From assembly GCF_034043515.1 (NCBI RefSeq), contig NZ_CP138214.1, forward strand, positions 2,418,001 through 2,482,000: a stretch of 64,000 bases of DNA, in the 5' to 3' direction. This document shows positions 21,429 through 22,760 of the stretch, piece after piece (the first letter of the stretch is position 1; the number at the start of each line of letters is the position of its first letter). The DNA comes from Pseudomonas sp. MUP55 (lineage in GTDB: Bacteria; Pseudomonadota; Gammaproteobacteria; Pseudomonadales; Pseudomonadaceae). The position numbers and the translations under genes are program-made. Below the pieces are notes generated by a model that saw only the letters and a list, made by a program, of their open reading frames with translations, was not told the origin of the DNA and did not search any database.

Positions 21429-21511
21429 TGTGGGAGGGGGCTTGCCCCCGATAGCGGTGTATCAGTCAGCTTATTTGCAGCTGACCCACCGCCATCGGGG
21501 GCAAGCCCCCT
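21429..21511. repeat. REPIN (family A), left part, interrupted by IS110
   Basis: TGTGGGAGGGGGCTTGCCCC to GGGGGCAAGCCCC plus CT at 21510-21511; the missing CCCACA continues at 22755-22760 after the insertion. The rejoined sequence GCAAGCCCC-CT-CCCACA is the intact REPIN end seen elsewhere. Confidence 0.92.
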
Positions 21512-21529
21512 TGTGTCTTGAGCCAGGAT

Positions 21530-21535
21530 TAGACT
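21530..21535 (+). promoter_or_regulatory. -10 half of a junction promoter of the IS110 element
   Basis: TAGACT lies 17 bases after TTGCTT only if the ends are joined: TTG (22750-22752), core CT, then T21512. In the inserted state the -35 position reads CCCCTT, a poor box. Transcription from the circle would start near 21541, where the predicted RNA structure begins. Confidence 0.6.
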
Positions 21536-21539
21536 GAGG

Positions 21540-21697
21540 GTGAGAGCGGTGAGTAGCAAGCTGAATGCCCCGAGTGCTTAAAGCACGTGTGGGAGCCCAC
21601 GCTGCTACTCACCTCTCCGCTCTGGACATGAGCCCGAACAGTTGAACGAGCCCACCTCGAACAGTTACAAGCGTGGGCCAAGCCAGAGCGCTCTCAC
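21540..21697 (+). ncRNA. Candidate bridge RNA (two-loop guide RNA) of the IS110 element
   Basis: A closing stem GTGAGAGCG (21540-21548)/CGCTCTCAC (21689-21697) can enclose two hairpins. Loop one: stem GTGAGTAGCA (21549-21558)/TGCTACTCAC (21603-21612), with an inner hairpin GTGCT...AGCAC at 21574-21586. Its 5' side carries GCCCC (21567-21571), equal to the left target; its 3' side carries TGTGGGAG (21588-21595), complementary to CTCCCACA on the right. Loop two: stem CGCTCTGG (21618-21625)/CCAGAGCG (21683-21690), inner hairpin CGAG-CCCAC-CTCG. It carries ACAGTTG (21638-21644), equal to the element's right end (22746-22752), and ACAAG (21667-21671), complementary to CTTGT at its left end. This matches the target-loop/donor-loop plan described for IS621. 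Confidence 0.75.
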
Positions 21698-21720
21698 ATT
21701 AAGTGTAAGAGGATTTGGCT

Positions 21721-22653
21721 ATGTTTTCCTATCCAGCAGGTATTGATGTTTCCAAGGACAGCCTTGAGGCTCGAGTTAATCAGGTTGACGTTGGGGTAAA
21801 TTGCGCTAACGCCGAAGAAGATTTCCCTGGGTTGATTGGGTGGCTATTGCTTCACCAGGTTGGTCGCGTGGTATTGGAGGCTACTGGCGGTTATGAGCGC
21901 AAAGTCATGAAGGCGCTTCAGGCTGCGGGCCTTGATGTCATCTGCATCAATCCGCACCGAGCCAAGAGTTTTTCCAGGGCGATGGGCAAACAAGCCAAAA
22001 CCGACCCGATAGACGCAAAGTCTCTTGCGCACTATGCAGCTGTTCTAGACTCGCCAAGCGCCCGAGTTACAAGCCCGGAGCACGATAAGCTGCGCGCGTT
22101 GGTCCAGCAGCGGGAGCATTTTGTTCAGCAAAGAGATGACGACAGACGACGCCTGAAAACAGCTTCCTGCGATGCGGTAAAGCCTGCATTACAGAACCAT
22201 ATCGACTATTTGACCGTGGCAGTGGAGGCGATAGATCAACTGATTCGTCAAAGTGCGAACGAGTTAGATAGCGAAAAGGTGGCTCGACTGTGTTCAGTCA
22301 AAGGAATCGGGCTGGTTACTGCCACCAGTCTTATGGCTTACCTGCCTGAGCTGGGAGAGATTGGAGGGCGCCCTATCGCGGCACTAGCGGGCCTCGCTCC
22401 GTACAACAACGACAGCGGAAGGCATAAAGGTGCACGCCATATTAGTGGCGGAAGGTTTTCAGCCCGTCGCTCACTTTACATGGCCTGTTGGGTGGTTATC
22501 CGTGACCAGCCAGAATTCGGGACTCGATATAAGGCGCTACGTGATAAAGGGAAATGCGCCAAAGTCGCGTTGATCGCCTGTATGCGCGTTTTGTTGGTAC
22601 GTCTGAACGCGATGCTGCGTGACCGCACTGAATGGAAAGAGCGCACCGATTAG
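21721..22653 (+). CDS. IS110-family transposase (DEDD recombinase)
   Basis: 310 residues from the ATG at 21721 (AGAGG ribosome site; the TTG at 21715 is less likely). The N-terminal RuvC-like DEDD domain has D9 (GIDVSKDSLEA), E53 (VLEATGGYER), D95 and D98 (KTDPIDAK). The C-terminal Tnp domain has the family block LAGLAPYNNDSGRHKG...ISGGRFSARRSLYMA with candidate catalytic serines S232 and S242. Such enzymes recombine a circular form into a target using an element-encoded RNA. The gene looks intact. Its codon use is more AT-rich than its neighbours. Confidence 0.92.
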   Translation: MFSYPAGIDVSKDSLEARVNQVDVGVNCANAEEDFPGLIGWLLLHQVGRVVLEATGGYERKVMKALQAAGLDVICINPHRAKSFSRAMGKQAKTDPIDAKSLAHYAAVLDSPSARVTSPEHDKLRALVQQREHFVQQRDDDRRRLKTASCDAVKPALQNHIDYLTVAVEAIDQLIRQSANELDSEKVARLCSVKGIGLVTATSLMAYLPELGEIGGRPIAALAGLAPYNNDSGRHKGARHISGGRFSARRSLYMACWVVIRDQPEFGTRYKALRDKGKCAKVALIACMRVLLVRLNAMLRDRTEWKERTD

Positions 22654-22752
22654 CTCGGTAGCAGCAATTTCCTTCAGCATTGCACGGCCTAAGCTGTGGG
22701 AGCTTTGCTGCCTATGAAAATGACTTCTGAATTGAATCCAATAAGACAGTTG

Positions 22753-22760
22753 CTCCCACA
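22753..22760. repeat. REPIN (family A), right remnant after IS110
   Basis: CTCCCACA, the end of the REPIN begun at 21429. Confidence 0.85.

What the first reader, a model, noticed from the sequence alone, without database searches (positions are those of the whole stretch)
21510..22754. IS110 element with a candidate bridge RNA whose guides match the REPIN it occupies
The 5' non-coding end can form a closing stem and two internal hairpins. Loop one carries GCCCC (21567-21571) and TGTGGGAG (21588-21595), matching the left and right sides of GCAAGCCCC-CT-CCCACA, the exact insertion site, around core CT. Loop two carries ACAGTTG (21638-21644), identical to the seven bases before the CT at the right end, and ACAAG (21667-21671), complementary to the core plus left end. 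The chance of four such matches in the correct order is small. If right, this element is programmed for the host's own most abundant repeat.
Basis: partly seen in the sequence, partly recalled or inferred. Interest (0 to 1): 0.95.

Follow-up and report, generated by a model that had tools for sequence, protein, structure and literature searches.

The report
RNA-guided jumping gene homing to REPINs
All 11 copies of this 1,241-base jumping gene in one Pseudomonas genome sit at the same base of one very abundant host repeat; its non-coding end is predicted to make a guide RNA whose loops match that repeat, and across relatives these guide stretches change together with the sites they occupy.

Summary
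The element (21512-22752, CT on both sides) is an intact IS110-family insertion sequence. Each of the four matches occurs once in the left end, at the stated place; all four in order arose in 0 of 200,000 shuffles. The genome holds 11 copies, 11 of 11 at the same REP base. Over 20 guide types from relatives, the left target guide matches its site at 85 of 95 positions (19 usable rows) and the right one at 99 of 100, neither reached in 50,000 permutations. Target- and donor-loop stems show compensatory changes. A promoter that would exist only in the excised circle keeps its spacing in 125 of 125 readable loci. As a system this is not new: IS621 is a proven bridge-RNA element aimed at REPs; ISPpu9, ISPpu10 and ISPa11 sit in Pseudomonas REPs. 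It is a new member of a known kind. The fresh part: the guide's last base agrees with the host's commoner REP form in 20 of 21 genomes, and the exception occupies unmatched sites in 3 of 3 copies, as expected if a host shift precedes guide change, though availability of sites explains it too. No RNA or recombination was measured.

The parts
21429..21452 (-). Other REP arm of the same REPIN (TGTGGGAGGGGGCTTGCCCCCGAT), unoccupied
   Evidence: sequence; 13-mer listed at 21429 (-)
21501..21511 (+). Left target GCAAGCCCC plus CT core
   Evidence: 11 of 11 copies
21512..22752 (+). IS110-family element, 1,241 bp
   Evidence: 11 copies, 0 to 5 substitutions from this one
21530..21535 (+). Predicted -10 box TAGACT of the circle-junction promoter; the -35 (TTGCTT) forms only when 22750-22752 + CT meet 21512
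   Evidence: T, A and last T invariant in 33 of 33 aligned left ends; 17-base spacing in 125 of 125 readable loci
21540..21697 (+). Predicted bridge RNA (about 158 nt)
   Evidence: fold; pair counts; RNA not observed
21549..21612 (+). Target-binding loop, stem GTGAGTAGCA/TGCTACTCAC
   Evidence: 9 of 10 stem pairs with compensatory changes
21567..21571 (+). Left target guide GCCCC
   Evidence: co-varies with site
21574..21586 (+). Hairpin GTGC..GCAC between the two target guides
   Evidence: paired in all 33 sequences
21588..21595 (+). Right target guide TGTGGGAG (reverse complement of CTCCCACA)
   Evidence: co-varies with site
21620..21688 (+). Donor-binding loop, stem CTCTGG/CCAGAG
   Evidence: 5 of 6 stem pairs with compensatory changes
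21638..21644 (+). Left donor guide ACAGTTG
   Evidence: identical to 22746-22752
21667..21671 (+). Right donor guide ACAAG
   Evidence: reverse complement of CTTGT, core plus element start
21721..22653 (+). IS110 recombinase, 310 aa
   Evidence: PF01548 E 9.6e-22, PF02371 E 3.3e-14; IS621 and ISCro4 chains match
22753..22760 (+). CT core and right target CCCACA
   Evidence: 11 of 11 copies

Best explanation
This is an intact IS110-family insertion sequence whose left end is predicted to be transcribed into a bridge RNA that would direct its recombinase to one fixed site in the host's REP/REPIN repeats. Likely cycle: the element leaves its REP as a circle; the joined ends create a sigma-70-like promoter (TTGCTT-17-TAGACT) absent from the inserted copy; that promoter makes the RNA. 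Loop one pairs GCCCC with the bottom strand left of the CT core and TGTGGGAG with the top strand from the core rightward. Loop two pairs ACAGTTG and ACAAG with the two sides of the circle junction. The DEDD/serine recombinase then exchanges the strands at CT. Shown here: ends, sites, guide-site co-variation, conserved fold, promoter spacing. Inferred: circle formation, transcription, RNA binding, catalysis.
For: 11 of 11 copies at one REP position. Guide-site co-variation: left guide 85 of 95 positions over 19 of 20 guide types, taking the better of a 2- or 3-base linker in real and permuted data alike (permutation mean 63.4, maximum 78); with a fixed 2-base linker 82 of 95 (maximum 76); right guide 99 of 100 over 20 types (mean 84.2, maximum 97); each 0 of 50,000. 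With one row per distinct site, left guide 46 of 50 over 10 rows (maximum 43 in 50,000). Fold: 96.1% of cells paired, 17 pairs with two-sided changes against 6.9 by shuffling and 2-4 when slid. Junction promoter 17-base spacing in 125 of 125 loci with both ends readable; in the G018/G364 lineage an extra base at the right end is offset by one fewer in the left end. Catalytic residues align with IS621 (IS621 residues from passages of PMC11208158). 1,112 target 13-mers in the genome.
Against: No transcript or activity data. Permutation rows are related by descent. With only four right-guide positions one of 50,000 permutations equals the observed 79 of 80. The left guide's sixth base back does not match in this element, and relatives vary beyond the fifth. 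L091 matches only 3 of 5. At the last left base, site choice is also explained by which REP form is available (3 of 3 unmatched sites in G165 has probability 0.86 from availability alone). No guide type has CT after the left guide (0 of 20). The outer enclosing stem shows no compensatory change, one of its inner pairs fails in 13 of 31 sequences, and RNAalifold prefers pairing its 3' arm with the region of the ribosome-binding site.
Confidence: 0.91

Rival explanations
1. The recombinase protein alone recognises the REP; the left-end RNA only controls translation of the recombinase, as small RNAs and a folded leader do for ISPpu9.
For: ISPpu9 leader regulation is published (passages of PMC8450116). 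Here the 3' arm CTCTCAC can pair with the stretch holding the AAGAGG ribosome-binding site, the fold RNAalifold prefers.
Against: It does not explain why loop bases change with the site in step, or a loop-two match to the element's own ends. Regulation and guiding may both be true.
Confidence: 0.05
2. The left end carries REP-like words because it once captured a REP fragment, so matches reflect shared origin, not guiding.
For: TGTGGGAG is the start of the host REP and also recurs in the element's right end (sequence).
Against: Matches fall at the same two loop positions in 20 guide types and follow unlike sites (CTTCCTACA with guide AGGAAG; ATTCG with ATTCG; AGCTG with AGCTG).
Confidence: 0.03
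3. The matches are chance.
For: GCCCC and ACAAG alone occur in 33% and 28% of shuffles.
Against: 0 of 200,000 for all four in order and the independent comparative tests.
Confidence: 0.01

Closest known systems
IS621 (E. coli)
   Same: IS110 family, DEDD plus serine recombinase, left-end bridge RNA, CT core, circle-junction promoter, REP target (passages of PMC11208160 and PMC11208158)
   Different: Distant by sequence (101.9 bits). Here the right target guide can pair over 8 bases (core included) instead of 4, neither left guide is followed by CT, and the predicted RNA has an enclosing stem where IS621 has a 5' stem-loop
ISPpu10 / ISPpu9 (P. putida KT2440)
   Same: IS110 elements, 7 of 7 copies each in REPs with two-base repeats (passages and table of PMC1525189); ISPpu10 is one of six elements with a published predicted bridge RNA (figure legend)
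   Different: Host strain; ISPpu10 sequence was not at hand, so kinship with this element was not measured. ISPpu9 was studied for small-RNA control of tnp (passages)
ISPa11 (P. aeruginosa)
   Same: REP-targeting (6 of 6 copies) and among the elements used in the seekRNA study (passages of PMC11187229)
   Different: IS1111 group: guide RNA downstream of tnp, subterminal inverted repeats
ISEc11 / ISXne4 pair
   Same: A published natural re-direction: related elements whose guide RNA and target differ in step (passages of PMC11187229)
   Different: IS1111 group, one pair; no link drawn there, in the passages seen, to the abundance of a host repeat

Membership tests
IS110 family | DEDD_Tnp_IS110 and Transposase_20 domains | tested here: met
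   both above cut-off
IS110 family | D-E-D-D and serine catalytic residues | tested here: met
   E53, D95, D98 and S232 invariant, D9 nearly invariant, in the ten rows of A1; aligned with IS621
IS110 group (as against IS1111) | Guide RNA in a left end longer than the right end | tested here: met
   209 against 99 non-coding bases; RNA itself predicted
IS110 group (as against IS1111) | No long subterminal inverted repeats | not tested
   no dedicated search made
Bridge-RNA element | Loop one matches both sides of the target and changes with it | tested here: met
Bridge-RNA element | Loop two matches both sides of the donor junction | tested here: met
   little variation in the donor, so no co-variation test
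Bridge-RNA element | Promoter formed at the circle junction | tested here: met
   sequence feature only, 125 of 125 readable loci; activity not testable
IS621-type pairing | Core dinucleotide included in all four pairings | tested here: not met
   0 of 20 guide types have CT after the left target guide; ACAGTTG is followed by AA here
Bridge-RNA element | RNA is made, binds the recombinase and is needed | not testable with these tools
   no expression or activity data
ISPpu10 subgroup | Close sequence kinship with ISPpu10 | not tested
   ISPpu10 sequence not identified in the calls made

The most novel reading that the evidence does not exclude
The guide evolves to follow the host's own REP dialect: an element enters a species whose REPs differ by one base, inserts there despite the mismatch, and its guide then mutates to match. 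G165 (guide GCCCG, sites GCCCC in 3 of 3 copies, 370 against 19 REPs) would be a lineage caught before that correction, and the window's element (GCCCC, 1,112 against 8) one after it.
Probability: 0.45. Interest if true: 0.68.

Novelty: new member of a known kind. Interest (0 to 1): 0.5.

Why it matters
Bridge RNAs are reprogrammed in the laboratory, and natural re-direction has been reported for one IS1111-type pair and through family-wide guide-target covariation (passages). This family adds a graded set of related elements with readable guides, readable sites and countable alternative sites in each host, including one lineage whose guide and sites disagree by one base. It would also be a case of one genome parasite living on another abundant repeat, with about a thousand sites to use (cost to the host not tested). 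In the held library no paper contains both 'bridge RNA' and 'REPIN' (0), and none of the papers listed has a title or abstract opening about guides following host REPs; their full texts were not searched for it beyond the passages cited.

Tried and rejected
Recoding: the in-frame TGA of the relatives G010 and G262 proved to be the ordinary C-terminal stop; G156, listed with one TGA, shows none within the aligned stretch. In G117 (a truncated copy) a stop lies near the start of the matched stretch, not followed. Spread on plasmids: 2,400 plasmid records match the recombinase, all below 60% identity, so no close plasmid carrier was found there. Viral contigs: 2 distant relatives. Rfam: nothing at gathering threshold. 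Placement of G165: the protein tree puts it with the GCCCC clade (95/87), DNA trees put it with the G121/G175 elements (76/79 coding, 78/90 left end); coding DNA does not reject the protein placement (p-AU 0.23), the left end barely does (0.045). The order 'site first, guide later' is therefore not established.

One search was given 33 of the 37 distinct left ends (window for L155; near-duplicates L041, L056, L156, L183 left out). One search used 19 of the 20 guide types, leaving out one with a worse right guide (GTGGGGGAG); one search repeats the test with all 20, of which the left-guide test uses 19 (G127's left flank is cut by a contig end). Sites are the majority site of each guide type; 129 loci, 1 without a right end and 3 with a truncated left end set aside, 125 counted; several loci are repeat fetches of one place, and the -10 was taken as the first TAnnnT in bases 16-30. 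The host table holds 21 genomes; G018, G161 and G127 have other sites, G228 had no readable left end, and G117 and G142 are broken copies.

Full report
WHAT IS THERE. The element runs from 21512 to 22752 between two CT dinucleotides. Its one gene (21721-22653, 310 aa) has the two IS110-family domains; by sequence its only matches among solved structures at E 0.001 are the IS621 and ISCro4 transposases. The genome (one contig, 5,948,019 bases) holds 11 full copies, 0 to 5 substitutions from the window's, each with an open gene. Ten copies with exact ends, with flanks joined, give a continuous REP sequence; the eleventh shows the same site. The insertion lies between the hairpin part GCAAGCCCC and CCCACA of a REP, so it separates two parts of the arm. 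Whether that stops REPIN mobility is inference.

THE FOUR MATCHES. Each word occurs once in the 209-base left end at the coordinates given. By the published pairing rules for IS621 (passages of PMC11208160), a left guide should equal the top strand left of the core and a right guide should be the reverse complement of the right side: GCCCC and TGTGGGAG do this for the target, ACAGTTG and ACAAG for the donor junction. Shuffling gives all four in 4 and in order in 0 of 200,000.

COMPARATIVE TEST. Relatives came from 298 and then 398 genomes of the genus (20 and 31 with matches at the thresholds used; the sets overlap) and from named genomes (best 80 of 483). In 129 loci with the TGTGTCT left end, 20 guide types were read. 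Guide and site: GCCCC/GCCCC, GCCCG/GCCCG, ATTCG/ATTCG, GCCAG/GCCAG, GGCCG/GGCCG, AGCTG/AGCTG; right guide AGGAAG with CTTCCT, TAGGAG with CTCCTA. Over all types the left guide matches 85 of 95 positions (19 rows) and the right guide 99 of 100 (20 rows), both outside 50,000 permutations; with four right-guide positions instead of five, 1 of 50,000 equals the observed value. Permutation ignores descent; with one row per distinct site (10 rows) the left-guide result stands (46 of 50; maximum 43). The ten missing left positions: two in L091, one each in L093, G289, G010, G262, a G156 variant, G310, G161 and G364 (rows). Seven of the ten are G-U type pairs (guide T for C, guide G for A), the kind IS621 itself tolerates: its guide reads ATCGGGC, its usual natural site ATCAGGC. 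Within a guide type single copies stray: in G310 one of five sites is GTCCG, exactly its guide, the others GCCCG; in G308 one of five sites is GGCCG.

STRUCTURE. On 33 distinct left ends a named structure of 37 pairs has 96.1% of cells paired and 17 pairs with two-sided changes, against 28.7-47.9% and 2-4 pairs when slid. Support is strong for the target-loop stem (9 of 10 pairs) and the donor-loop stem (5 of 6). The hairpin between the guides never breaks. The enclosing stem (21540-21548 with 21689-21697) is 91% paired in its outer seven pairs but without compensatory change there; of its two inner pairs one fails in 13 of 31 sequences and the other has a single two-sided change. Its 3' arm can instead pair near the ribosome-binding site, which RNAalifold prefers. 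A switch between guide RNA and closed start site is possible but untested.

CIRCLE-JUNCTION PROMOTER. In the 33 left ends bases 19, 20 and 24 (TA...T) are invariant while none of bases 8-18 is. Joined to the right end through CT this gives TTGnnn, 17 bases, TAnnnT in 125 of 125 loci with both ends readable. In the lineage of G018 and G364 (12 of these loci) the right end ends in TTGG instead of TTG and the left spacer is one base shorter, keeping 17; this is probably one evolutionary event. In the inserted window copy the place of TTG is taken by CCC of the target. IS621 has such a promoter, so this is agreement, not novelty.

DO GUIDES FOLLOW THE HOST'S REPS? Counting GCCCCCTCCCACA and GCCCGCTCCCACA on both strands of the host genomes (reversed-pattern controls 0 to 2 per strand): the guide ends in C in G000 (1,112 against 8), G188 (1,115/13), G309 (1,082/9) and G158 (518/61). 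It ends in G in 17 genomes, 16 with the G form in the majority (for example G046 1/656, G298 0/1,013). The exception is G165 (370/19), guide GCCCG, 3 of 3 sites GCCCC. Agreement is 20 of 21 genomes; Fisher p 0.0008 ignores descent and is not to be taken at face value. G018 has guide ATTCG and 66 ATTCG REPs, which the five other genomes searched lack. Site choice at the last base is also compatible with availability alone. The GCCCC clade is well supported (98/97 protein, 100/100 coding DNA), so near the window's element the C guide most simply arose once.

SAME AND DIFFERENT. It works like IS621 and belongs to the IS110 family. It departs from IS621 in that the core appears to be read by the right guides only: none of 20 guide types has CT after the left target guide, and the left donor guide is followed by AA here. 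A more distant relative in G188 shows TTGTGCCCT in loop one beside site GTGTGCC-CT, so the loss may be a trait of this subgroup. A published drawing of the ISPpu10 guide exists (only its legend was seen), so the trait may already be visible there.

VERDICT. The finding is real and well read. Its headline mechanism is known from IS621 and predicted for ISPpu10; what deserves follow-up is the natural history of guide change. All papers were seen as search listings and passages only; none was read whole.

Noticed in passing
G364 loci L194, L195, L196, L214 against L193, L174: Four copies share one identical single-base frameshift in the recombinase gene yet sit at four different REP sites; two copies are intact. 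Disabled copies seem to have moved with recombinase supplied by others (inference).
   Followed up: partly
L042, L043, L044 (G000 1168089, 1087926, 3369952): Three solitary right-end remnants of the element, each joined on its left to sequence resembling another REP family, two of them breaking near the same word.
   Followed up: partly
22694-22760: The right end contains CTGTGGGAG facing the CTCCCACA of the target, so the inserted copy can form an inverted repeat over the right boundary (fold); a similar word is seen in several close relatives.
   Followed up: no
G188 loci L197-L200 and G339 loci L179, L201-L204: A second IS110 type (about 38% identical) inserted repeatedly beside near-identical sequence, GTGTGCC-CT in most copies, whose loop one appears to include the core; its right end was not located.
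   Followed up: no
21690-21720: The arm CTCTCAC can pair either with the guide RNA's 5' end or with the stretch holding the AAGAGG ribosome-binding site of the recombinase gene.
   Followed up: partly
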